Shown: piece by piece, positions 38,355 to 51,300 of the stretch
Layout: every line of letters begins with the position of its first letter
Position numbering within the stretch: the stretch's first letter is position 1
Assembly: GCF_001280205.1 (NCBI RefSeq)
Contig: NZ_CP012573.1
Span: forward strand, 620,001-684,000
Reading direction: 5' to 3'
From: Clavibacter capsici
GTDB lineage: Bacteria > Actinomycetota > Actinomycetes > Actinomycetales > Microbacteriaceae
Length of the DNA stretch: 64,000 bases
Program-made: the position numbers and the translations under genes
The notes under the pieces: generated by a model
What the model saw: only the letters and a program-made list of their open reading frames with translations
Databases searched by the model: none
Told to the model about the DNA's origin: nothing

Positions 38355-38618
38355 CCCCCTAGTGTGCCTCGTCAGCGACGGCGGCGGATCCGGATCCACC
38401 CGACGCGGTGGGGGGAGCAGGCGAGCGACGGTCCGGTCGGGATCCTCTGCCATGTGCAGGACGGGCCGTCCGTCGTGCCGACAGGTGATTGGCTCTGGCG
38501 CCATCGGAGCGGTGCGTCCCGCGCGTGGCTCGTGGAGGGCGGGGGGCCACGGCCGGTCGGCCCGCCCGGCACCTGCCGATGTGGCCGACCCGGTCGGCGG
38601 ACGAAGGAGGAGGGCGAC

Positions 38619-39725
38619 GTGGATTGGTTCCGCAACGCGGTGTTCACGCCCGGCGCCGATCGGGACGAGGTCGGCGCCGGACTCGACGAGTACGTCACCG
38701 AGCTGCGCGCATGGGCTCGCCGTCATGTCGATGCGCCTGTCGGCGTCTTCCTGAGCGGCTCCCTCGCCCGGCGGGAACCGGGTGTCATGTCCACAGGCCA
38801 CGGTGGGGTCCTCCTGTCCGACCTCGACCTCGTGGTGATCGCCGCCGGGGAGGAACTCGCACAGCGCATCGCCGGGACGCTGAAGGCCGAGATGCTCGAG
38901 CGGAGGCCCGATCTCACGACCACGACCTTCGCGGTCGACGTCGGGAACCTGAGGCGCCTCCGGGGGAGCGTCGCCGCCGACCTCGCGCAGGGGTGGGACG
39001 AACCCCTGTACGGCAGCGCACCCGGGCCGTTCCCCCGCCGCGACCTGACGGATCGAGACCACGAGGAGCTGTGCATCCACCAGTTGGGGGCGTGCCTGTT
39101 CTATCCCCCTGCCGACGCGCCGTGCGACGGCCTCCGCCACTTTCGTCCGGGCCGGGGGATGCACGCGGTGAAGTCCGTCCTGGAGTCCCTCCGCCTCCGG
39201 GTGAGCGTCGCCGGGGTGCGAGCGCCGACCTACGCATCGCTCCTCGCGCCCGAGTCCTCCGAGGTCCTCGCAGCCGAGCAGCGCGACCTGGCGCATCGCG
39301 CGATCCGGGCGCGCGAGTTGGGCGCGCCGCTGTCCGAGTTCGACGACCTCGCCATCCCGTCCGTCCTGGCGGCTCTCTCCGACCGCCTCGGCTGCTCGCC
39401 GACACAGGCGTCGCTCGCTCGTGCGGTCGAGGACCGCGTGCGGGACCTGACCGGGGTGCTCCCGCTGTTCTCCGCGCTCGCCGTCCTCCTCGCGCTCGGC
39501 CCCGGGGATCCGCCTCTGGATGCGGCGATCCGCGGATTGCTGGCACGCACGAGCGACGCCGAGCTGCCCACGTCCCGCTCGGCGCGCGATCAGCTGGTGA
39601 GCGCAGCGTCGCCCGGCGACCTCGGCGTCCACCTGCCTCTCTGGCTCGACATCCGCGAGGACTACTACACGCGACTCGGCGACACGAACTTCGGGCGCGT
39701 GGCCGATCCAGGCGGACATCGATGA
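38619..39725 (+). CDS. Nucleotidyltransferase-fold protein, first gene of the accessory cluster
   Basis: A 368-residue protein with a pol-beta-type nucleotidyltransferase motif: GSLARRE at 47-53 and SDLDLVVI (Asp68, Asp70) as metal ligands. The remainder is helical, with no family I recognise. Such proteins adenylylate small molecules, antibiotics or proteins. In a biosynthetic cluster it could be a tailoring or self-resistance enzyme. GTG at 38619 follows the strong site AAGGAGGAGGG (38603-38613). The stop overlaps the aminotransferase start (ATGA). Codon use is less GC3-extreme than in flanking genes (TTG, TCG, AAA-type codons more frequent by eye). Confidence 0.7.
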   Translation: MDWFRNAVFTPGADRDEVGAGLDEYVTELRAWARRHVDAPVGVFLSGSLARREPGVMSTGHGGVLLSDLDLVVIAAGEELAQRIAGTLKAEMLERRPDLTTTTFAVDVGNLRRLRGSVAADLAQGWDEPLYGSAPGPFPRRDLTDRDHEELCIHQLGACLFYPPADAPCDGLRHFRPGRGMHAVKSVLESLRLRVSVAGVRAPTYASLLAPESSEVLAAEQRDLAHRAIRARELGAPLSEFDDLAIPSVLAALSDRLGCSPTQASLARAVEDRVRDLTGVLPLFSALAVLLALGPGDPPLDAAIRGLLARTSDAELPTSRSARDQLVSAASPGDLGVHLPLWLDIREDYYTRLGDTNFGRVADPGGHR

Positions 39726-40876
39726 CGGCGGCGCCCGAGCACGAGCTCCCGGGATGGAGCTCCTCCCGCGCGCGCGCCCTCCACGCCCGACGGTGGGCCG
39801 AGGTCGAGGGATCCGACATCCTGCCCCTCACGACAGCGGAGTTCGACGTCCCGACCGACCCGGACATCATCGCCGCCGTGCAGCGACGCCTGGAGGACCC
39901 GTTGGCGTACGAACCGCATTACACGAGCGGCGCAGTGGGGGCGACTCTGGCGCGCTTCCACCGCGAGGAGCACGGCATCCCCGTCTCCTCGGAGTGCTTC
40001 TGGCTCGTCGCGGGGGTGATCGCCGCGTCGCGAGCAGTCCTGGTCCAGGTCATCTCGCCGGGCGACGAGGTGCTCTTCCTGCGCCCGTCCTACCGACCGA
40101 TCGTCGACGCCATCGTCGGCGCCGGCGGCGTCCCGGTCGCTGCGGACATCTCGTCGCCCCGGGGCATCGTCGCATCGCTGCGGGAGGCGCTGAGCCCCCG
40201 GACCCGCGCGGTGTACCTGTGCCACCCGCACAACCCGACCGGTCACAGCCTCAGCGCTGACGACCTCGGCGGCATCGCGGAGCTGGCGCGGGAAAGCGAC
40301 CTCGTCATCCTCTGCAACGAGCTGCACGCCCGCCTCACGTTCCAGGGGCGGCACGTGCCCGCGGCCGCGTCGGCACCGGAACGCGTCATCACCTTCGGCG
40401 GGGCCACGAAGTCCCACAACCTCGCCGGCCTCGGCGGCGGTTTCGTCTACACGCAGGATGCTGACTGGGCTGCGGCGCTCCGCCAGGCTGCCGGGAGCTC
40501 GGTGCCGGCAGCGCGGGGACTGCAGCAGCTCGGGCTGCAGGTCGCGTACTCCAGCGAGCCATCCGGATGGCTGGGACGCATCAGGTCGTCCATCGTCGCG
40601 AACCGCCGGCGGCTGTCGACCGCCCTGGTCGGCTGGGATCCGACGCTGGACGTGTACCCGTCCTCGGCGACGGGCTTCATCTGGGCGCGCTCCGGTCGCC
40701 ACGCGGACCTGGCTCGGGAGCTGGAGCGCGACACGGGGATCCGCACGGCCCCCGGCCGCTCGTTCGGCGTCGGAGACGCACACGTGCGCATCGCCGTGCC
40801 GCTGCCCGTCACGACGCTGGAGGAGACGATCCGCCGTCTGTCGGGGGGTGAGGCGGCGGCGGGCGGACGCGGGTGA
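39722..40876 (+). CDS. PLP-dependent aminotransferase/C-S lyase, MalY-PatB type
   Basis: A 384-residue fold-type I enzyme. The PLP lysine is Lys230 in GGATKSHNLAGLGG. HPHNPTGHSLS and CNELHARL match the MalY/PatB group (normally CDEIH). MalY/PatB enzymes cleave cystathionine or cysteine conjugates, but relatives in biosynthetic clusters act as transaminases. In this cluster it would be the aminotransferase. It is coupled to the nucleotidyltransferase gene and its last 68 bases overlap the convergent reductase gene. Confidence 0.82.
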   Translation: MTAAPEHELPGWSSSRARALHARRWAEVEGSDILPLTTAEFDVPTDPDIIAAVQRRLEDPLAYEPHYTSGAVGATLARFHREEHGIPVSSECFWLVAGVIAASRAVLVQVISPGDEVLFLRPSYRPIVDAIVGAGGVPVAADISSPRGIVASLREALSPRTRAVYLCHPHNPTGHSLSADDLGGIAELARESDLVILCNELHARLTFQGRHVPAAASAPERVITFGGATKSHNLAGLGGGFVYTQDADWAAALRQAAGSSVPAARGLQQLGLQVAYSSEPSGWLGRIRSSIVANRRRLSTALVGWDPTLDVYPSSATGFIWARSGRHADLARELERDTGIRTAPGRSFGVGDAHVRIAVPLPVTTLEETIRRLSGGEAAAGGRG

Positions 40877-41726
40877 CGGCCGAGAAGTCGGTTCCCGGGC
40901 CGAACTCGCGGGCCGCGCGGTCGTAGGCGTGCTTCACCCGCACGATCTCGGCCCGGCCCTGGCCGTCGCCGATCATCTCGAGTGCGTGGCCGAGGTCCTT
41001 GACCATGTTCCGCACGGAGAAGTCCGCATCCCCGAAGTCATGCCCGAGAGCGCGATCCAGCTTCGCGTCCATGACGAGCGACATCCACCCGTCGGACCTC
41101 AGGATCCTCCAGGCGGTGTCCCGTGACTCCGGGAGCGCGGACTCGAACAGGGGGACGAAGGTGGTGAGGGTCTGGAGCAGCGCGGCCCCCCAGGCGTTGT
41201 AGAGCAGCTTGAACCGGGTCGGATCGCCGGGAGTGGGGAAGTCGTACACGACGGCGGCCATCGCCGAGTAGAAGGGCTCCAGGCAGCTGGTGTCGTCGGC
41301 CGAGTGCCGGAAGGCGGACAGGCTCCCTCGGGCGGCCCCGCTCCTGCTCCCCGTGAGCGGGGACTCGACCGCGCGACCGCGAGTGGCCCCGACGGCGCGA
41401 TGCCAGTCGAGGAACCACCGGACCCCCAGCGTCCCCATCTCGACGGCATGGGCCGGTCGATCCTCCAGGTAGCCGCGCATCTGGTCACCGAACCAGATCT
41501 CCGACGCGCGTGCCTCCGACTCCGCGCACGACACGATCACGGACGGCTCCCACTCGAGGGCCGCGGAGATGTCGTCGACGCCCGCCTTGCCCCCGTTGCC
41601 AGGGTCCGGGTAGTGCCGCGACAGCACACGGACGTCGGCGACGGGCGCGACGTTGCGGATGATGCCCTGCGTCATCACCCCGCGTCCCACGAAGAGGACC
41701 TTCAGCCGGTCCTCCTGCCCGTTCAC
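40809..41726 (-). CDS. NAD(P)-dependent 3-hydroxyisobutyrate dehydrogenase-like reductase
   Basis: A 305-residue beta-hydroxyacid dehydrogenase relative. The Rossmann loop is VLFVGRGVMTQGI (10-22). ESPLTGSRSGAARG (121-134) corresponds to the family substrate loop APVSGGxxGA, and Lys173 with Asn177 (KLLYN) matches the catalytic Lys/Asn. The C-terminus ends in a Pro-rich tail translated through the overlap with the aminotransferase gene. It is the last gene of the seven-gene minus-strand operon and starts with GTG overlapping the previous stop. The substrate is unknown; it may reduce a keto or aldehyde intermediate. Confidence 0.75.
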   Translation of the reverse strand: MNGQEDRLKVLFVGRGVMTQGIIRNVAPVADVRVLSRHYPDPGNGGKAGVDDISAALEWEPSVIVSCAESEARASEIWFGDQMRGYLEDRPAHAVEMGTLGVRWFLDWHRAVGATRGRAVESPLTGSRSGAARGSLSAFRHSADDTSCLEPFYSAMAAVVYDFPTPGDPTRFKLLYNAWGAALLQTLTTFVPLFESALPESRDTAWRILRSDGWMSLVMDAKLDRALGHDFGDADFSVRNMVKDLGHALEMIGDGQGRAEIVRVKHAYDRAAREFGPGTDFSAVTRVRPPPPHPPTDGGSSPPAS

Positions 41727-42853
41727 CGTGCCGTCTCCGATCCGGCGACGAGGCCGCGGCGGACGCCGATGCAGCGGAGCTGACGGCTCCACTCGTCGAC
41801 GGGCATGGCTCCGAAGTGCGGGATGTCGGTGAAGTAGCGCGCGTCGCGCCCGGGCGGCAGTACGCGCTCGTCCCGGGCCTCCCCTCGGGCGATGGCCAGG
41901 TGCTCGTCGGTGATCCCGTGCGTCGATGCCCGGACCTCGTGGTCCATGGACAGGAATGCGTCGACGTCCAAGGAACTGGTGCGTCGCTGCTCGTCCCGCA
42001 CGACGCGGGCGAGGTCGGCGTCGATCAGGGCCAGCAGGGCGTCGACCGGGGCGGACAGCACCTGCGCGTCGAGAGCCAGCATCTTGGCGATCTTCTTCAC
42101 CTCGTGGCCGCCGCGCGACGGGCCAGCGCGCAGACCGGCATCGGAGGCCGCGAGGAGCGCGTCCGACAGGGCGAGCAGGCGGAGGGTGCGCATGCTGGAC
42201 GTCAGGGTGCCCATGTCAGGGCTGATCCCGAGCAGATCGCTGACGGCGCGTTTGCCGGAAGATCCGTGGATCGTCGGCACCAGGCCGATCGCGACCTCGA
42301 GGTGCGCGATGTTGAGGTGCAGCTCGGTGAAGGTGTCGCCGTGCATGTCGAACGTGACCACGTCGAAGAGCGGGAAGACCCCCTGCGGGCGACGGAGGAA
42401 GAACTTGTGGTACTCGCCGAGTCGTCGTCCGTCGACGTGGAAGGGGACGCGGAAGTCGATCTCCGCGGCAGTGAAGGTCCGGGCGATCGCCTCATCCGCG
42501 CTCACGACGAACAGGTCGGCGGGAGCCACGCCATTCGCCTGGCAGAAGGCCGACGGGAAGTCGAGGAGGAGCCGCTCGTCCCGGCCGCGGGTCACGGTCA
42601 TCATGTGGACGAGATCGTGCTTGATCTCCCAGTACGGGTTGGGTGGAGTGACCTTCAGGTGCCTGGTCCAGATGGTCCTCGCGGGCGTGGCGAAGGTCGC
42701 CCCCGGGCTGAGCGCGGTGAGGTCGTGGCTCTGGAGCACGGACCCGAGCAGCCAGCCGTCCTGCGCGAGAGGCGGCACCGGACTGCTGCGGAAGCACGCT
42801 CCCTCGGCGAAGGCTCCCATCCAGGAGAGGGGGGACTCGTCAGCAGACCACAT
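41723..42853 (-). CDS. Unrecognised 376-residue cluster protein
   Basis: A soluble protein with no family I can name and no signal peptide or membrane helix. Visible features: an N-terminal aromatic segment (WMGAFAEGACFRSS), conserved-looking HDLVHMMTV (about 80-88), EYHKFFLRRPQGVFPLFDVV (about 148-167), and a predicted helical middle (about 225-310). His and Asp are frequent in HLNIAHLEVAIG and TFDMHGD, so metal binding is possible. It overlaps the BacA-like gene by 14 bases and the reductase by 4, so it is an integral operon member. Confidence 0.7.
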   Translation of the reverse strand: MWSADESPLSWMGAFAEGACFRSSPVPPLAQDGWLLGSVLQSHDLTALSPGATFATPARTIWTRHLKVTPPNPYWEIKHDLVHMMTVTRGRDERLLLDFPSAFCQANGVAPADLFVVSADEAIARTFTAAEIDFRVPFHVDGRRLGEYHKFFLRRPQGVFPLFDVVTFDMHGDTFTELHLNIAHLEVAIGLVPTIHGSSGKRAVSDLLGISPDMGTLTSSMRTLRLLALSDALLAASDAGLRAGPSRGGHEVKKIAKMLALDAQVLSAPVDALLALIDADLARVVRDEQRRTSSLDVDAFLSMDHEVRASTHGITDEHLAIARGEARDERVLPPGRDARYFTDIPHFGAMPVDEWSRQLRCIGVRRGLVAGSETAR

Positions 42854-43397
42854 ACACGCACCACACCATCGTCGGGTTGAAGGTCTTGCGGACGACTATC
42901 CGGCCGCTCGCCACGAGGGTCTCGGATCGCTCGGTCACCGAGCCGATGGCGTAGCGATACCCCTCGTGGAGCATCGCCTCGAAGGCGAGCGGCTTGCTCC
43001 GGAAGTAGACGGGCGGCCGGTCCGCATGGTCGATGCCGGACGCCTTCGACAGCGCGCGGGTCGCGGGCTGCAGCGCCATGCCCGAGCGCAACCAGGCAGT
43101 GTTCTCGAACACCGCCATCGGCTTCGTGGGTCGCATGAAGGTGCAGATCAAGGTCACCTTGTCGATCGAGGCGAAGTGGAGATCGACCCAGCTCAGCCCG
43201 GACTCGTCGTCCACGTATCCGGCGGGCATGACGACGAAGTCCGCCCGCAACTCGGGCAGCCGGTCGAAGAGCTCCGTGTACGTGTCGCACAAGCGGATGC
43301 GCGCGTTGCACCCGAAGGCGTCGCTGTGCCACGCCCGCGCGGCGGCCACCGAGTCCGTGCCTGCGGGGCCGAGCACGTGCACGGCCGGCCTAGGCAT
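42840..43397 (-). CDS. Prephenate dehydratase/BacA-like (prephenate-using) protein
   Basis: A 185-residue protein with the bilobed prephenate dehydratase-type fold. HVLGPAGTDS (7-16) matches the GPxGTxS phosphate/substrate loop, DTYTELFDRL the next helix, and DFVVMPAGYVDD the PIEN-like strand. The TRF motif of true dehydratases is absent, and no ACT domain follows. Both features, and the length, match BacA, the prephenate decarboxylase of bacilysin synthesis. The alignment was done by eye and from memory, so the reaction is uncertain. It overlaps MFS and unknown neighbours. Confidence 0.6.
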   Translation of the reverse strand: MPRPAVHVLGPAGTDSVAAARAWHSDAFGCNARIRLCDTYTELFDRLPELRADFVVMPAGYVDDESGLSWVDLHFASIDKVTLICTFMRPTKPMAVFENTAWLRSGMALQPATRALSKASGIDHADRPPVYFRSKPLAFEAMLHEGYRYAIGSVTERSETLVASGRIVVRKTFNPTMVWCVYVVC

Positions 43398-44650
43398 GAT
43401 CGGCCCGATCCGTGGGGGCGTCGGCCCCGTCCGCCGGAGGTAGCAGGCTCGGCGGGCGTCGCGAAGCCAGGAGCACCACCGCGGAGACGGCCACGAAGCC
43501 GATTGCCGCGATCATCGCGAGCACCGGCGGGCTCACCGCGCTGCTGAGCTGGCCGAACACCATGTTGCCGAGGGGCAGCGAGGCTCCGGCCAGCGTCACG
43601 ACGAACGCGAAGACCCTCCCGATGAGCGCCGCGGGCGCGGACGTCTGGAGCTTCGTGAAGAGCACCACGTTGTACGCGGCGACGACGCCGCCCAGCGTGA
43701 ACAGGACGAGGGCGGTCACGGCCAAGGAGTCGATCGTCAGGCAGGCCAGTCCCGTGGCGACGACGGGGGCCAGATGCGCGGCGCGGAAGCCGTTGATCCG
43801 CGAGGCGAGCACGCCCGCGGCGATGCCGCCGGCGAGCGCTCCTGCAGCTTCCGCGACGTTGCCCAGCCCGAACGCCGCCGCGCCCCAACCTGTCTGCGTG
43901 GATCGGGTCAGGAGCACGAAGGTCGGCGCCATGAGGAAGAAGTTCAGTGACGTGGCGCACCACTACCTCCCGAGACAGAGCCCGGTCGAGCTTCAGGAAC
44001 CGGACACCACCGAGGATCAGCTCGAGGCGCTTCTCCGATCGGTCCGTGGGCGCCTCGGCGCATCTCGTGGACACCGCCATCGTGAGAGCGGCCGAGACGA
44101 GGAAGGAGATGCCGTTCACCGCCGTCGCGGCGGGGAGGCCCGCATCACCGCCCAGGAGCAATGCGGCGCCCACGACGGGACCGGCTGAACGAGCGACCTC
44201 GCTGACGATCGCGTAGGCGCTGTTGACTCGGATCAGGGAGCGCGGATCGGTGATGAGCGGGGTCAGCGCCCTGCTCGACGGCGAGTAGAGCGCCGCGAGG
44301 GCGGCCAACAGGATCATCAGGGTGGCGATCTGCGCGAGGGAGACGGAACCCGGATGAGTGAACTGCCACGCGCTCACGACGCCGCAGGCGGCGGCTGCCG
44401 TCACGTCGATGGCGATGAGCAGCTTCCTCCTGTCGACTCGGTCGATCCAGAAGGTCCCGAAGAGCCCCACCAGGAGGGTCGCGACCCCGGCGCATGCGTT
44501 CGTGGTGCCGACGGCATCGCTCCCGAGCGCGGAGCCGATGGCCCACGTCGCCACCACGCCGAAGGACAGGCCACCCAGCTTCGATGTGCCCACCGCGGCC
44601 AGCAGCCAGCGTGCGCTCGCGAATCCGATCGGGGCGGGCTGCGGCGTCAT
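43390..44650 (-). pseudogene. MFS exporter gene interrupted by a single-base frameshift
   Basis: Frame A from the ATG at 44650 encodes about 229 residues of an MFS (EntS-like) exporter, with RVDRRKLL in loop 2-3 and YSPSSRALTP. Frame B from about 43962 to 43390 encodes the second half (FFLMAPTFVLLTRSTQTGWG to the stop). Frame B has a TAG at 43963-43965, so the shift lies between about 43938 and 43963. Joined, the product is about 420 residues, normal for the family. The start overlaps the ADC-like stop (ATGA). Possible causes are real inactivation, a sequencing error or programmed shifting. Confidence 0.82.
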
Positions 44651-45309
44651 AGCGGTATCGAGCCGCACAGGGTGAACCCGCTCGCGGAGGAGGCGACGGC
44701 GACCAGCTCGAACGGATGGCCGGAAAGGATCCCGGTGCCCGAACCGGCCGTCACGCCGACCGAGAGATCCGGCCGATCATGGACGTCCTCCACGTTGAGC
44801 CGATGGATCTCGGGGCGACGGCGTCCGTCGGGGGTCTGGATCACGGTGACCACTGGCGGGACGGCCATGCGGGGAGCCTCCCCCTGCGCCTCTGGTGCAT
44901 CCCACAGGGACACGTCGACGTCGAGGGACTCCATCGAGAACGTCCATCTCGCGTCCTGGACGGCGGGGATGCACGAGGAGAAGTGCTTGTCGAAGCCGAG
45001 CTGGTACCCGCGGACCACGGAGAGCTCATGATCGACGAACGTGCGGATCGGGTAGGTGTGATCCTCGCCGCCCATCGTCACCGGGATCTTGACGAGCAGC
45101 TCACGGTAGGGCGTCCACGTCTCGCCGTCGAACTCGGTCCGGAGGTTCGACAGCGTGAGGATGAAGGACTCCGTGCGCAGCTGGTCGGCGATCACGTCCG
45201 GGACCTCCACGTCGAGCAGCGCGGAGACAGGACGGATGCCCCCGATGAAGCGGCAGAGGATGTGGATGTCGCTCGTCTCGACCCGATTCGGCAGCCGGAC
45301 GCACCTCAT
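44647..45309 (-). CDS. Acetoacetate decarboxylase superfamily enzyme
   Basis: A 220-residue protein resembling the acetoacetate decarboxylase family. PYRELLVKIPVTMG (68-80) contains the conserved Glu70. FVDHELSVVRGYQLGFDKHF (91-110) aligns with VDNxxAxxxGRExxGxPKK and puts a candidate Schiff-base lysine at Lys108. Members include decarboxylases, aldolase-dehydratases and enzymes of unusual amino-acid synthesis. In this cluster it may process a prephenate-derived or keto-acid intermediate. It overlaps the ATP-grasp and MFS genes by 4 bases each. Confidence 0.68.
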   Translation of the reverse strand: MRCVRLPNRVETSDIHILCRFIGGIRPVSALLDVEVPDVIADQLRTESFILTLSNLRTEFDGETWTPYRELLVKIPVTMGGEDHTYPIRTFVDHELSVVRGYQLGFDKHFSSCIPAVQDARWTFSMESLDVDVSLWDAPEAQGEAPRMAVPPVVTVIQTPDGRRRPEIHRLNVEDVHDRPDLSVGVTAGSGTGILSGHPFELVAVASSASGFTLCGSIPL

Positions 45310-46532
45310 GCCGGAGCCATCCGGAGCTCCCGGGCGACGACCGCGCGTGCTTCGTCCAGCTTGGCGCGCAGCGTGTCGTGCGTGTCCGCCGTCAGCTCCA
45401 GTATCACCGCGTCCTCGTGGACCGCGGTCGCGTCGCTGGTGATGTCTCCCTCGACGACGTAGACGAAGGCCGTGTCGGCCTGCGGGAACGACGACGGCGT
45501 GGGGGCGGTGACGACGCGTCCCGCCGTGCGGTACTTCGCATAGCACGACGCGAAGCGCCTCGGTCGCGGCAGGGTCTCGGCGGAGAGCGGCACGATGCGG
45601 AGGCTCTCGCCTCGCATGGCCTTCCAGTAGTCCTCCAAGAGCGTCGCGTCGAAGGCGTACCGGCAGAGGCGCGGGATGCTCAGGCCTCCGAACCGCCGCC
45701 CGACCTCGCAGAACACGGGGAGGCCGGCCTCGTCGACGAACCACTCGAAGTGGAAGGGCGTGACGGCGTCGGAGGCCCCCGTCAGGGTCTTCAGAGCCGC
45801 ATGGACGAGGGCGAAGAGGGTCTGGATGAGGGCCGGCTCATCGACGTACGCCCTGCTCGTGGAGATCGTGAGGCCGCTCCCCGCGTGGAGGGAGTCCAGC
45901 ACCATCTCGTCGTACTCGTGCACGTAGAAGTGGAGGATCTCGCCACCGACGGCCATGCCGTCGCATGTCAGCATCCGATCGCTGACCACCGCCTCCTCTG
46001 CCATGCGCTCATCCGTGATCGTGTGGCGCACCGAGTCGGATCCCTCCATCGCGGAGAGCCGACGCACGCCGGCGCCTCCGGCGCCCCTTCGGGGTTTGAG
46101 GATCCCGAAGCCTTCGCCGGCGAGATCGGCCAAGGTCCCGGTGAAGTCCGTGAGGCCACGGAACCGGGGCTGGGGGACGACGCCCTGCAGAGCGCTTCGC
46201 ATGAAGAGCTTGTCCTTGAACATCGTGCCGACAGCGAAGTCGGACGGGCCCGTCACGAAGAACTCGTGGAGGAATCCGGCCGTGTCCATGTCCTCCTCGC
46301 CCAGGGTGGAGACGGATCGCAGCTCGTGCGTCTCCTGCAGCTCCCGCAGGGCGCCCATGAGCACGGGGAGGTCGAAGGACTCGAGGAAGCGCACCTTGCT
46401 GAGGTCGATCCGGCTGTCGCTCGTGTACCGGTGGCGCACCTGCTCGTGCCCCAGGATGACGACGTCCTCGGCGATCGCGTTCCAGAGGTCGACCGCTCGG
46501 GGCGTGTGCCGGAACAGGACGACGTGGGTCAC
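45306..46532 (-). CDS. ATP-grasp ligase (L-amino-acid-ligase-like)
   Basis: A 408-residue ATP-grasp enzyme. Lys108 (DKLFMR) and Lys146 (GFGILKPRRGAGGAGV) are the nucleotide-binding lysines. FEWFVDEAGLPVFCEVGRRFGG carries the Mg-binding acid residues. Stand-alone ATP-grasp enzymes of this size typically join a carboxylate to an amine, as in BacD-type dipeptide formation. It is coupled to the galE-like gene (GTGA overlap). Which two substrates it joins cannot be read from sequence. Confidence 0.82.
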   Translation of the reverse strand: MTHVVLFRHTPRAVDLWNAIAEDVVILGHEQVRHRYTSDSRIDLSKVRFLESFDLPVLMGALRELQETHELRSVSTLGEEDMDTAGFLHEFFVTGPSDFAVGTMFKDKLFMRSALQGVVPQPRFRGLTDFTGTLADLAGEGFGILKPRRGAGGAGVRRLSAMEGSDSVRHTITDERMAEEAVVSDRMLTCDGMAVGGEILHFYVHEYDEMVLDSLHAGSGLTISTSRAYVDEPALIQTLFALVHAALKTLTGASDAVTPFHFEWFVDEAGLPVFCEVGRRFGGLSIPRLCRYAFDATLLEDYWKAMRGESLRIVPLSAETLPRPRRFASCYAKYRTAGRVVTAPTPSSFPQADTAFVYVVEGDITSDATAVHEDAVILELTADTHDTLRAKLDEARAVVARELRMAPA

Positions 46533-47566
46533 CGGTCGACTCCGCGGTGAGCGTCCGAGGATGGCGAGGCGGCGAGGAGGGCGGCGAGCTTCGGGGCCCA
46601 GGCGAGGGAGTCGGCCACCCCCTGCTCGAGCGAGCGCTCGGCGCTCCAGCCGAGCAGCTCCTCTGCCTTGCTCGTGAGCGGCGCGCAGCCCGCCACGTCC
46701 CCGGGTCTCGCTTCCGCACGGGTCACGGCGAGCTTCGCGTCGACCACCGACTCGAACGCCGACAGCAGCTCGAACACCGTCGTCCCCGTCCCCGTGCCCA
46801 GGTTGATGACCTGGTACGGGGCGCGCGTCGACGATCGCACCAGGTCGTCGAACCGCTGGAGGGCGAGGATGTGCGCTCGGGCCAGGTCCCACACGTGCAC
46901 GTAGTCGCGGAGGCCGGAGCCGTCGCGCGTGGGCCAGGTCGTGCCGGTGACCGTGAACGTGCCAGAGGCATTCGACGCCTCGATCATCTTCCCGAGCGCG
47001 TGCGACGGGTTCGTGCTCTGGAGACCCGACCGCATGTCCGGATCCGCGCCGATGGGGTTGAAGTACCGGAGCACGACGGCGCTCATGAGACCCGCCGTGC
47101 ACGCGTCCTGCAGGATGCGCTCCACCATGTGCTTGGACGCGGAGTACGGGCTCTGGGGCGCGACGGGGGAGTCCTCGTCGACGAACTCGCCGCCGCTCGA
47201 TGCGTACATGGACGCGGTGGAGCTGAAGACGAACCGGTGGATGCCGCGAGCGGTGAGGGCCCGCACGAGGGAGATGGTCTTCGCGACGTTGTTGTCGTAG
47301 TAGTCGAGAGGCTTCTCCATGGACTCCGGGACGACGATGCGGGCGGCGCAGTGGATGACCGCGTCGATGTCCGGGTGCCTGTCGACGATGGCGTCGACCA
47401 GGCGGGTGTCGCCGATGTCGCCGACGTGCAGCTCGCCGTGGTGGACGAACTCCGGGCGGCCCGTGCTGAGGTCGTCCAGGACCACGATCTCGATGCCTGC
47501 GTCGAAGCCGTACGAGGCGATGGTGGACCCGATGTAGCCCGCCCCTCCGGTGATGAGGACTTTCAT
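46529..47566 (-). CDS. UDP-glucose 4-epimerase-like SDR enzyme
   Basis: A 345-residue extended short-chain dehydrogenase with GGAGYIGS (7-14), Thr/Ser in SSTASMY and the active pair Tyr141/Lys145 (SPYSASKHM). LRYFNPIGADP and the C-terminal GWSAERSLEQGV are typical of GalE. It interconverts UDP-glucose and UDP-galactose or a related pair. As first gene of the operon (site ACAGGAG before the ATG), it could supply a sugar for the product, or be a housekeeping enzyme used as a cluster starter. Confidence 0.88.
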   Translation of the reverse strand: MKVLITGGAGYIGSTIASYGFDAGIEIVVLDDLSTGRPEFVHHGELHVGDIGDTRLVDAIVDRHPDIDAVIHCAARIVVPESMEKPLDYYDNNVAKTISLVRALTARGIHRFVFSSTASMYASSGGEFVDEDSPVAPQSPYSASKHMVERILQDACTAGLMSAVVLRYFNPIGADPDMRSGLQSTNPSHALGKMIEASNASGTFTVTGTTWPTRDGSGLRDYVHVWDLARAHILALQRFDDLVRSSTRAPYQVINLGTGTGTTVFELLSAFESVVDAKLAVTRAEARPGDVAGCAPLTSKAEELLGWSAERSLEQGVADSLAWAPKLAALLAASPSSDAHRGVDR

Positions 47567-47811
47567 GACGCGATCTCCTGTCTCCGAGGCGGACGGGACA
47601 AGCGCGGCCCGATTGGTGCGAGAGCGTATGGCTGGTGCCCGGCGGCCTGAGGCTGTTGTCCACCGTCGCCGACGCGAGGTCCGCGTGCCCAGCGGGGCGG
47701 AGACCGGTCAGGACGCGTGCCGCGCACCGCAGGGACGACGGACCGAGAGCCTCAGCTCATGCGCGGGTGGTGGCCGGGCTGGGCCGAGACGGGCATTCCT
47801 CGTTTCGCGGG
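47567..47811 (-). promoter_or_regulatory. Upstream region of the minus-strand biosynthetic operon
   Basis: No gene is seen in these 245 bases. CATACG (47630-47625 on the minus strand) is a possible -10 element about 59 bases before the galE-like start. There is no convincing -35 element. The region should carry the promoter of the seven-gene operon. Confidence 0.35.
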
Positions 47812-48210
47812 TCAGCGACGACGGCGGATGCGGATGGGCCCTCGGGCGGTGGAGGGATCGACGACCGACCCCTTCTGGGTGATCTCCACCTCGCCCGCCT
47901 CCACGAGCCGCCGGGCCGCGCGCCGGGCCGGCTCCATCAGGTCGCGCCAGTCGTCGGGCGACTCCGCGCGGGCCGCCTCGGACGGGCAGATCGTTGCGCC
48001 GCCGGCGCGGTGGGCGAGGAGGTCGAGGATCCGCCGCTCGAGCGCCGCGTCGACGTCGGAGACCCCACGGCGCCGGCACGCGTCGCTGCAGTAGCGGACC
48101 TGGTCCCAGTCGCGCTCCCACTTCCTGCGCCACTCGATCGTGCGACCGCACGAGGCGCAGGTCTTGGGCTCGGGGACGCGGTCGGTCGTGCTCGATGCCC
48201 GGTGCGCCAT
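47812..48210 (-). CDS. DUF2256/DUF3253 zinc-motif protein
   Basis: A 132-residue protein with an N-terminal DUF2256 zinc ribbon (Cys18, Cys21, Cys41, Cys45; [20 protein letters not shown]) and a C-terminal DUF3253 winged-helix-like domain ([20 protein letters not shown] through [14 protein letters not shown]). The combination is common in actinobacteria; DNA binding is plausible but unproven. ATG at 48210 follows GGAGGG. Confidence 0.85.
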
Positions 48211-48398: not shown

Positions 48399-51300
48399 CT
48401 GCATCTCCTCTCCGTCTTCAGCCTCCGCAACCGGGCGCTGATCGCGCTCATCACGATCGTCATCGGGGTGTTCGGCGGCATCGCGCTGACGACGCTCAAG
48501 CAGGAGCTCATCCCGTCGGTGTCGTTCCCGCAGCTCGCGGTCGTCACCGCGTACCCGGGGGCGTCGCCCGCCGTCGTCGACTCCGACGTGTCGACGCCCA
48601 TCGAGCGCGCGATCCAGGCGGTGCCGGGCCTGGAGTCCTCCACCGCGACCTCGCGCACCGACTCCTCCGTCATCTCGGCGTCGTTCACGTACGGCACCGA
48701 CCTCGCGACGGCCGAGCAGAAGATCGACCAGGCCATCAACCGGATCCGCACGACGCTGCCGGACGGGATCGACCCCGTGGTCATCGCGGGCAGCATCGAC
48801 GACCTGCCGGTGATCCAGATCGCCGTCACGAGCGACCTCAGCCCGCAGGACCTCACGGCCGCGCTCGAGCGCTCGACGCTCGGCGACATCCGCAAGCTCG
48901 AGGGCGTGCGCGACGCGAGCCTGCTCGGCACGGTGGGGCAGCGCGTGGTCATCACGCCGGACCCCGCGAAGGTGCAGGGCGCCGGCCTCACGAACCAGGC
49001 GATCCGCGACGCGCTCGACGCCAACGGGAAGCTGCTGCCCGCGGGATCGGTGACGGAGGACGGCACCACGCTGTCGGTGCAGTCGGGCACGCGCCTCGGC
49101 TCCACCCAGGACCTCTCCTCCCTGCCGCTCTTGGGCGCGGCCGGCGGGCGCGAGCTGACGATCGGCGACGTCGCCACCGTGGAGCTCGGCCAGGACCCCA
49201 CGACCGGCATCTCGCGCGTCGACGGCCAGCCCTCGCTCACCATCGCCGTGACCAAGACGCCCGCGGGCAACACGGTCGACGTGTCCCACCTCGTGACGGA
49301 GCTCCTGCCGCAGCTCGCGGACGACCTGGGGAACGGCACGGAGTTCACGGTCGTCTTCGACCAGGCGCCCTTCATCGAGCAGTCGATCTCGAGCCTCACC
49401 ACCGAGGGCCTGCTCGGCCTCGTGTTCGCGGTGCTCGTGATCCTCGTGTTCCTCATGTCGATCCGGTCGACGATCGTGACCGCGATCTCCATCCCGGCCT
49501 CGGTGCTCATCACCTTCATCGGCATGCTCGCCTCGGGCTACACGCTCAACATCATCACGCTCGGCGCGCTGACCATCGCGGTCGGGCGCGTGGTGGACGA
49601 CTCGATCGTGGTGATCGAGAACATCAAGCGGCACCTGTCCTTCACGCCCGACCGGCTCGACGCGATCCGCGCGGCCGTGCGCGAGGTCGCGGGCGCCGTG
49701 ACGGCGTCGACCGCCACGACCGTCGCGGTGTTCCTGCCGATCGCGCTCGTGGGCGACATCACGGGCGAGCTGTTCCGGCCGTTCGCGCTCACCGTGACCA
49801 TCGCGCTCGCCGCGTCGCTGTTCGTCTCGCTGACGATCGTCCCGGTGCTCGCGTACTGGTTCCTGCGGCCCGAGGGGGAGTCGCGCCGGGCGCGCCGTAA
49901 GGCGGCGGCCGCGGCGGGGACCGTCCGCACGGGCGCGCACGCCGCCGTCCGCGGATCCGCCGACGACCGCGAGCGCTCCGGCCGACGCGCGCACGGATCG
50001 CACGCGGCGCACGGCGACGGCGAGGGGACGGACCGGCCCACGCGCCTCCAGCGCGGCTACCTGCCGATCCTCGCGTGGACGCTCAAGCACTCCGCGGTGA
50101 CGCTGGTGCTCGCGATCCTCGTGCTCGGCGGCACCGTCGCGCTCATCCCGAGCATGAAGACCAACTTCCTCGGCGACAGCGGGCAGAACACGCTCACCGT
50201 CTCGCAGGAGCTGCCGAGCGACACGAGCCTCGAGGCGCAGGACACCGCGGCCACGAAGGTCGAGCAGGCGCTCATCGGCGTCGAGGGCGTGGACACCGTG
50301 CAGACCTCCATCGGCGCGGACAGCACGTCGCCCACGGCGGCGTTCAGCGGCGGGGGCGGGATCACGTTCTCGCTCACGACCGACTCCGACGCCGACCAGG
50401 ACGCGATCCGCGAGCGCGTGCGGACGGCCGTCGACGGCCTCACCGACGTCGGCGACGTGTCGCTCGCGGCGGCCTCGGGCGGGTTCTCCTCCAGCGACAT
50501 CGAGGTGCAGATCACCGCGAACGACTCCGACGACCTCAAGGCCTCCGCCGACGCGATCCTCGCCGCCGTGAAGGACATCCCGTCCATCGAGCAGGCCACG
50601 AGCAACCTGTCGGAGACGCAGCCCTACATCGCGGTGACCGTCGACCGCGCCAAGGCCGCGGCGGCCGGGCTCAGCGAGCAGGCCGTGGGCGGCATCGTGA
50701 CCGCGAGCCGGCTGCCGGCCGCGGTCGGGCAGGTCGTGATCGACGAGAAGACGCTGTCCATCTACATCCAGGACCCGGACGCCGCGCAGAGCCTCCAGGG
50801 GCTGCGCGACTTCCGGATCCCCACGGCGCGCGGCCTCGTGCCACTCAGCGACCTGGCGACGGTCGAGGTGGCCGACGGCCCCGCGACCGTGACGACCACG
50901 GGCGGCTTCCGCAGCGCGACCGTGAGCGCGACGCCCGGCAGCGACGACGTGGGCTTCGCCTCGTCCGAGGTGTCCCGGGCCGTCGCCGACGTGCAGCTCC
51001 CGGCCGGCGCGCAGGCGTCGCTCGGCGGCGTGGCCTCGCAGCAGTCGGACGCGTTCGGGCAGCTCGGGCTGGCGGTGCTGGCGGCGATCCTGATCGTCTA
51101 CATCATCATGGTCGCGACGTTCCGGAGCCTCGTGCAGCCGCTCGTGCTCCTCGTCTCGGTGCCGTTCGCGGCGACCGGCGCGGTGCTGCTGCAGGTGGTG
51201 ACGGGCGTGCCGCTCGGCGTCGCGTCGATCATCGGCCTGCTGATGCTGGTGGGCATCGTGGTGACGAACGCCATCGTGCTCATCGACCTCGTGAACCAGT

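What the first reader, a model, noticed from the sequence alone, without database searches (positions are those of the whole stretch)
38619..47566. Undescribed bacilysin-like biosynthetic gene cluster
Nine contiguous genes encode a prephenate dehydratase/BacA-like protein, an ATP-grasp ligase, a PLP aminotransferase, a 3-HIBADH-like reductase, an acetoacetate-decarboxylase-like enzyme, an MFS exporter, a GalE-like epimerase, a nucleotidyltransferase-fold protein and an unrecognised protein. Seven are in one minus-strand operon with 4-14 base overlaps. The combination of prephenate-type enzyme, ATP-grasp ligase, aminotransferase, reductase and exporter is the logic of bacilysin (BacA-BacG), but ADC-like, GalE and nucleotidyltransferase genes are not part of that pathway. 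It could make a novel dipeptide or amino-acid conjugate, possibly glycosylated or nucleotidylated.
Basis: partly seen in the sequence, partly recalled or inferred. Interest (0 to 1): 0.87.

Follow-up and report, generated by a model that had tools for sequence, protein, structure and literature searches.

The report
Acquired prephenate-type biosynthetic cluster in Clavibacter
A plant-pathogenic bacterium carries a small foreign block of nine genes that probably makes an unusual ring-containing amino acid or short peptide by a route related to, but different from, that of the antibiotic bacilysin; the product is not known.

Summary
They fill a 9.4 kb insertion (about 38396-47835) with low G+C and an imperfect 25-bp direct repeat at its ends; 16 of 16 congeners fetched (of 17) lack it at the same site. 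A plasmid contig points to Clavibacter capsici. The prephenate-enzyme-like protein (BAC) is not BacA proper but belongs to a separate clade, related to BacA by profile. Main result: relatives of six of the nine genes (BAC, GalE, aminotransferase, HIBADH-like, nucleotidyltransferase, ADC-like) form one contiguous operon beside NRPS genes in three actinomycete loci, two of them named Streptomyces; BAC, HIBADH, nucleotidyltransferase and GalE recur in Nocardia. The nucleotidyltransferase and aminotransferase links are weak. The 'odd' genes thus look core; BacB, BacC and BacG counterparts were not found. Best reading: a module making a non-aromatic prephenate-derived amino acid, joined in the window by an ATP-grasp ligase instead of NRPS. 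All chemistry is inferred and the product unknown. P0002 is an orphan whose fold could not be predicted.

The parts
38371..38395 (.). left copy of imperfect 25-bp direct repeat at the island edge
   Evidence: 23 of 25 identical to 47811-47835; the two congener empty sites that I read show one copy
38396..47835 (.). inserted island, 9440 bases
   Evidence: 16 of 16 fetched congeners are collinear on both sides and lack it; G+C 0.703 against 0.739
38619..39725 (+). NTase-fold protein P0008, 368 aa (GSLARREP...SDLDLV)
   Evidence: 29% to Nocardia P0003, E 2e-24; GSL[AS]R...SD[LV]D in the 7 aligned; no Pfam match; fold name from the motif, recalled
39722..40876 (+). class I/II PLP aminotransferase P0009, 384 aa
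   Evidence: PF00155 E 6e-32; 36% to the aminotransferase in L046
40809..41726 (-). 3-HIBADH-like reductase P0010, 305 aa
   Evidence: 39-42% to the partner in three six-gene clusters; catalytic-type Lys (role recalled) in 7 of 7 aligned
41723..42853 (-). orphan protein P0002, 376 aa
   Evidence: no Pfam, PDB, plasmid or genome contigs relative; model pLDDT 34
42840..43397 (-). BAC, prephenate-enzyme-like P0001, 185 aa
   Evidence: separate clade 100/99; profile match to BacA, probability 99.2
43390..44668 (-). MFS exporter gene split over two frames (first part from 44668 or 44650; second part 43390-43932)
   Evidence: PF07690/PF05977 on both parts, second part below cut-off; frame change about 44008-43919
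44647..45309 (-). ADC-superfamily-like protein P0011, 220 aa
   Evidence: PF06314 E 1.9e-5, below cut-off; 39% over 111 aa to the L009 partner; Lys of GF[DH]K in 4 of 4
45306..46532 (-). ATP-grasp protein P0012, 408 aa
   Evidence: only PDB match at E<=1 is an L-amino acid ligase, 4wd3, E 2.4e-4
46529..47566 (-). GalE-like extended SDR P0013, 345 aa
   Evidence: TIGR01179 over cut-off; 54-55% to BAC-linked GalE of L009 and L010, 35% to the genome's other GalE over cut-off
47811..47835 (.). right copy of imperfect direct repeat

Best explanation
The island is a horizontally acquired biosynthetic cluster. Its core is a recurrent module that turns prephenate into a non-aromatic (cyclohexenyl or cyclohexadienyl) amino acid. 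Proposed route, all chemistry inferred: BAC decarboxylates prephenate without aromatising it; the ADC-like enzyme acts on the resulting 2-oxo acid through a lysine imine (double-bond shift or cyclisation), taking the place of the cupin BacB; the HIBADH-like enzyme reduces it; the aminotransferase makes the amino acid; the GalE-like SDR oxidises or inverts the ring hydroxyl, or supplies a sugar nucleotide; the nucleotidyltransferase nucleotidylates an intermediate or the product (activation or self-protection). In the window the ATP-grasp ligase joins the amino acid to a second one, where the Streptomyces relatives have NRPS proteins, and the MFS protein would export it. Shown: gene content, island, operon overlaps, recurrence of the module, clade of BAC. 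Inferred: every reaction, their order and the product.
For: BAC clade matches the BacA profile (4 rows) with probability 99.2 but the genome's own prephenate dehydratase (1 row, so a weaker test) with 17, and lacks the TRF motif seen in that PheA (importance of the motif recalled). A relative in L. fermentum sits with chorismate mutase, chorismate synthase, EPSP synthase and prephenate dehydrogenase genes, tying the family to prephenate. ADC-like proteins can act on 2-oxo acids by an active-site lysine, as MppR does (passages of PMC10367076). The one PDB match of the ATP-grasp protein is an L-amino acid ligase.
Against: I found no measured activity for any enzyme of this clade. BacB, BacC and BacG counterparts were not found. 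The aminotransferases of window and six-gene clusters share only 25-26%, so they may not be orthologous. The window NTase matches the short one of L009 only at E 0.05; the link runs through Nocardia (E 2e-4 to 4e-4) and a shared motif. The GalE tree does not hold all BAC-linked GalE together (1 change in only 2% of bootstrap trees; Nocardia's fall apart). Four of seven close BAC loci in the G076 genus show no module within the 20 kb fetched. The exporter is split and P0002 is unexplained. The window BAC pairs with two lactobacillus rows on long branches, and the tree program warned of long branches.
Confidence: 0.55

Rival explanations
1. BAC is a stand-alone non-canonical prephenate dehydratase, and the cluster makes a phenylalanine-like (aromatic) building block.
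For: The L. fermentum relative sits where a pheA gene would be expected, in an aromatic amino acid operon. Weak PF00800 match, 13.5 bits.
Against: Profile match to BacA far stronger than to the genome's own PheA, and TRF missing in 16 of 16 clade rows aligned. The genome already has a prephenate dehydratase over the PF00800 cut-off.
Confidence: 0.17
2. GalE and the nucleotidyltransferase work on a sugar or nucleotide donor, so the product is a glycosylated or nucleotidylated amino acid or dipeptide.
For: GalE-type signature RDY.HV and RPGD kept. NTase motif kept. Both recur with BAC. An LD-carboxypeptidase gene lies beside galE in N. farcinica; such enzymes can give resistance to peptide nucleotides (recalled).
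Against: No glycosyltransferase was recognised among the nine. In the window and two BAC-linked rows (L009, L046) the stretch that binds the nucleotide in GalE (role recalled) reads P.HALGK, where the own GalE has PHNLFP; the Nocardia row does not share this. P0002 has no known family.
Confidence: 0.2
3. The island is a decaying, non-functional import.
For: MFS gene split; found in 1 of 18 genomes of the genus, one genome per species.
Against: The other eight genes keep open frames, high third-position G+C and overlapping starts. An assembly error is not excluded. Export could use another pump.
Confidence: 0.25
4. A true bacilysin (anticapsin dipeptide) cluster.
For: Aminotransferase, amino-acid-ligase-like ATP-grasp protein, MFS and a distant BacA relative are present.
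Against: No match to the cupin BacB or to the two SDRs; BAC outside the BacA clade.
Confidence: 0.03
5. Unrelated housekeeping genes that happen to lie together.
For: Several proteins match only broad families.
Against: Sharp insertion absent from the 16 congeners fetched; relatives of six genes lie together in other genera.
Confidence: 0.01

Closest known systems
Streptomyces anulatus NBC 01759 plasmid cluster (L009; no product known to me), with S. sp. BHT-5-2 (L010) and unnamed G806 (L045)
   Same: BAC, GalE, aminotransferase, HIBADH-like, NTase and ADC-like genes, all six
   Different: NRPS adenylation/thioesterase and condensation proteins and P0017 instead of ATP-grasp and P0002; short NTase only weakly like the window's; six genes on one strand; MFS without a match to the window's
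Nocardia clusters (N. carnea, N. abscessus, N. farcinica plasmid)
   Same: BAC, HIBADH-like, NTase (long type, as in the window), GalE
   Different: BAC fused to a ferredoxin domain; P450, amidohydrolase, methyltransferase; no match to the window's aminotransferase, ADC or ATP-grasp proteins
Bacilysin bac operon (BacA-BacG)
   Same: prephenate-type entry enzyme (distant), aminotransferase, ATP-grasp amino-acid ligase type, MFS
   Different: no BacB, BacC, BacG match; BAC in another clade; GalE, ADC, NTase, HIBADH, P0002 added
Stravidin/amiclenomycin and salinosporamide, aeruginoside, suomilide pathways
   Same: cited or recalled as using non-aromatising decarboxylation of prephenate-type precursors (PMC10157211 passage; stravidin route recalled)
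   Different: this gene set is not described in the passages that I saw

Membership tests
Bacilysin cluster | BacA prephenate decarboxylase | tested here: not met
   window BAC lies outside the BacA clade (100/99); distant profile relation only
Bacilysin cluster | BacB cupin isomerase | tested here: not met
   no BLASTP match in the window at E 0.01 to the L042 cupin
Bacilysin cluster | BacC and BacG classical SDRs | tested here: not met
   no BLASTP match in the window at E 0.01 to the two L042 SDRs
Bacilysin cluster | BacD-type ATP-grasp amino acid ligase | tested here: inconclusive
   P0012 matches PDB 4wd3, an L-amino acid ligase, E 2.4e-4; BacD itself not compared
Bacilysin cluster | BacF aminotransferase | tested here: met
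   28% over 396, E 8e-14, at superfamily level only: another window aminotransferase matches too
Bacilysin cluster | BacE MFS exporter | tested here: inconclusive
   MFS gene present but split over two frames; not compared with BacE
BAC clade module (this work) | BAC, GalE, HIBADH-like and NTase in one cluster | tested here: met
   in the window and eight other loci, L009, L010, L045, L046, L048 (HIB part only), L003/L007, L008, L014; in Nocardia and L046 GalE is a few genes away
Prephenate dehydratase (PheA) | PDT domain over cut-off with TRF motif | tested here: not met
   13.5 of 25.2 bits; TRF absent
Prephenate decarboxylase | non-aromatising decarboxylation of prephenate | not testable with these tools
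   needs an enzyme assay
GalE (UDP-hexose 4-epimerase) | TIGR01179 over cut-off, YxxxK | tested here: met
   305.6 against 262.3 bits; SPYSASK; substrate untested

The most novel reading that the evidence does not exclude
The BAC-GalE-HIBADH-NTase quartet is a new way of building non-aromatic rings from prephenate, in which the nucleotidyltransferase tags an intermediate with a nucleotide and the altered GalE-type enzyme works on that tagged ring. Peptide antibiotic clusters of Streptomyces, Nocardia and Clavibacter share it but finish it with different machinery (NRPS or ATP-grasp).
Probability: 0.12. Interest if true: 0.8.

Novelty: new variant of a known kind. Interest (0 to 1): 0.55.

Why it matters
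If the reading holds, it defines a second family of prephenate-diverting natural-product pathways, beside BacA. It has a gene signature that can be mined for (BAC motif, HIBADH, NTase, GalE, aminotransferase, ADC), and suggests the same kind of building block being joined by an ATP-grasp ligase in one genus and by NRPS in another. It also shows one species of a plant-pathogenic genus with a secondary-metabolite island that the 16 congeners examined lack at that site.

Tried and rejected
Rejected: a true bacilysin cluster; housekeeping genes by chance; plain PDT membership. P0002: no relative in Pfam or PDB, plasmids or genome contigs (36 pattern matches, none confirmed). In 266 class genomes its only match besides itself is a 90-residue one at E 6.5e-4, which I take as chance over that many genomes; not followed. 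It does not match the 392-aa and 384-aa proteins of L046 and L048 or P0017 of L009. Its single-sequence model has pLDDT 34, so no fold search was made. The NTase model could not be run. An NTase scan of genome contigs gave two loci of 41 pattern matches, N. carnea and N. abscessus. The MFS of L009 has no match in the window at E 0.01. A Microbacteriaceae hit, G1225, has no other module gene in the 20 kb fetched. L006 (NTase hit at E 4e-4) was not followed. Paper searches, 10 in all; nothing in the listings or passages that I saw describes this gene set. The library is open-access only, so this is no proof that it is unpublished. MIBiG and antiSMASH could not be run.
Full report
Observation. 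Nine genes lie at 38619-47566: two on the plus strand (NTase-fold P0008, aminotransferase P0009) and seven on the minus strand (GalE P0013, ATP-grasp P0012, ADC-like P0011, MFS, BAC P0001, orphan P0002, HIBADH-like P0010), read from frame-specific G+C and translations. Overlaps in the minus-strand series are 4, 4, 4, 8, 14 and 4 bases, so the operon claim stands. The two units converge, with a 68-base tail overlap. The MFS gene is split: both parts match MFS families, the second below cut-off, but in different frames, changing between about 44008 and 43919. I did not try to mend it. Names for BAC, ADC-like, ATP-grasp and HIBADH-like proteins rest on matches below Pfam's cut-offs; relatives elsewhere support BAC, ADC-like and HIBADH-like, and a PDB match the ATP-grasp.

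Island. The first 12000 bases of a plasmid contig of the same genome match a Clavibacter capsici plasmid at 100%. BAC was found in 1 of 60 relatives, the window's own genome; none of the 17 congeners had it. The flank at 48468-49667 is present in 18 of 18 genomes of the genus. I fetched the stretch beside it in 16 of the 17 congeners. All 16 align to the window up to 38395-38429 and again from 47810/47811, with nothing between. An imperfect 25-bp direct repeat (23 of 25) marks the ends, and the two empty sites that I read show one copy. The island's G+C is 0.703 against 0.739 for the rest of the window, and none of 226 same-length windows is as low. None of the nine genes is recognised as an integrase, so how it entered is unknown.

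The module. BAC relatives are rare. A single-sequence query gave 2 of 394 genomes in a class sample, one of them the window's own. With the profile A3 there were matches in 31 of 295 genomes of the G076 genus (taken as Streptomyces; inferred), in which seven places in six genomes stand out at E<1e-50; in 2 of 299 of the family, one being the window's own; and in 8 of 249 of the Nocardia order, of which the one strong match is N. carnea, already known. Plasmid searches added S. anulatus, S. sp. BHT-5-2, S. goshikiensis, two Nocardia and two lactobacilli. Comparing the open frames of these loci with the window proteins gave the main result. In S. anulatus (L009), BHT-5-2 (L010) and G806 (L045) the genes BAC-GalE-aminotransferase-HIBADH-NTase-ADC are contiguous on one strand, behind MFS, condensation-domain and P0017 genes, with an adenylation-domain gene on the other strand (domains by Pfam for the L009 adenylation protein only). 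The NTase of L009 was first seen by its motif. By BLAST it is only E 0.05 from the window's, and is tied to it through Nocardia (E 2e-4 to 4e-4), so with the aminotransferase it is the weakest of the six links. L046 has BAC, HIBADH, NTase, GalE and an aminotransferase 36% identical to the window's. L048 has BAC, GalE and what reads as an HIBADH part joined to an NTase. Nocardia (L003/L007, L008, L014) has BAC behind a ferredoxin domain (Pfam on L003, annotation in L014), HIBADH, NTase and GalE; P450 and methyltransferase were seen in N. carnea and N. farcinica and an amidohydrolase in N. farcinica (in N. carnea from the reading). L013 has BAC with a GalE fragment. L047, L049, L050 and L051 (four of the seven strong places) carry BAC without this module in the 20 kb fetched. 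Identities to the window: GalE 54-56% in five loci (L009, L010, L045, L046, L048) and 33-39% in Nocardia; HIBADH 39-42% in the three six-gene clusters and 27-30% elsewhere; ADC 36-45% over 78-111 residues; BAC 28-36% in actinomycetes, 23-30% in lactobacilli; aminotransferase 25-26% in the three six-gene clusters.

What BAC is. A tree of 26 rows splits 16 BAC-clade rows from four BacA proteins and six others by a 100/99 branch. In it the window row pairs with two long-branched lactobacillus rows, and the program warned that long branches meet. Profile comparison: BAC clade (16 rows) to BacA (4 rows) probability 99.2, E 3e-19; to the genome's own PheA (1 row) probability 17. The comparators differ in depth; BacA to the same PheA gives 54.8. 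In the MAFFT alignment the TRF of the own PheA falls on W-x-[VL] in 16 of 16 BAC-clade rows; that the TRF threonine matters in dehydratases is recalled. In L. fermentum, genes for chorismate mutase, chorismate synthase, EPSP synthase and a split prephenate dehydrogenase flank the BAC relative, which ties the family to prephenate but does not tell decarboxylase from dehydratase.

Partners. The lysine of the HIBADH family (role recalled) is kept in 7 of 7, and the ADC-type lysine (GFDK or GFHK) in 4 of 4. A second lysine seen in PDB 5upb is not kept, by an alignment with E only 1.3. [quoted passage not shown] The NTase keeps GSL[AS]R and SD[LV]D in the seven rows aligned. The window's is the long Nocardia/L046 type; the three six-gene clusters have a short one. 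The window GalE is 55% identical to the BAC-linked one of G806 and 35% to the genome's other GalE. However, the BAC-linked GalE need two changes on the tree, and only 2% of bootstrap trees hold them together, Nocardia's standing apart. One common origin of all partners is thus not shown. The ATP-grasp protein's one PDB match at E<=1 is an L-amino acid ligase.

Against bacilysin. The S. goshikiensis cluster L042 (BacA, cupin, SDR, 'glucose 1-dehydrogenase', MFS, aminotransferase) served as yardstick. Of its five enzymes only the aminotransferase finds island genes at E 0.01, and it also finds an aminotransferase outside the island; its MFS was not compared. A review of bacilysin (PMC9147277, passages) gives BacA as non-aromatising decarboxylase, BacB as isomerase, BacG as reductase, BacF as transaminase, BacC as dehydrogenase and BacD as ligase. 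The window has plausible stand-ins (ADC, HIBADH, aminotransferase, GalE, ATP-grasp), which is analogy, not homology.

Novelty. Ten paper searches showed no description of this gene set in listings or passages. For stravidin I saw passages only. A Clavibacter genome paper (PMC11521342, 12 of 16 matching passages) includes C. capsici genomes and mentions antiSMASH, but those passages say nothing on this island. The kind (prephenate-diverting clusters) is known; the gene set appears to be a new variant. The product remains unknown, and the exporter's state leaves open whether the cluster works in this strain.

Noticed in passing
L049, L050, L051 (and partly L047): BAC-clade genes beside HPPD/hydroxymandelate-synthase-like and FMN-dependent dehydrogenase genes (Pfam run on L049 only; the others by reading); a different BAC-clade pathway, perhaps to a ring-glyoxylate or ring-glycine (idea recalled).
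   Followed up: partly
L003:9033-9782, L008, L014:10001-10750: BAC fused behind a ferredoxin domain (Pfam on L003; 'ferredoxin' annotation in L014) and next to a P450 in N. carnea and N. farcinica; plasmid-borne in N. farcinica and N. wallacei.
   Followed up: partly
L014:16112-17104: LD-carboxypeptidase gene directly after galE in the N. farcinica cluster; a possible self-resistance gene.
   Followed up: no
L011:8565-12901: A BAC relative sits inside an aromatic amino acid operon of Limosilactobacillus fermentum; the prephenate dehydrogenase there is in two pieces.
   Followed up: partly
L048:7490-8638: One open frame reads as the start of a HIBADH-like protein followed by the NTase: a natural fusion or a deletion.
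   Followed up: no
L013:13941-15183: BAC gene plus a GalE fragment near the end of a linear S. goshikiensis plasmid, perhaps a remnant cluster.
   Followed up: no
L042:7935-13328: Bacilysin-type genes BacA-cupin-SDR-SDR-MFS-aminotransferase on a S. goshikiensis plasmid, with no ATP-grasp gene annotated in the stretch.
   Followed up: no
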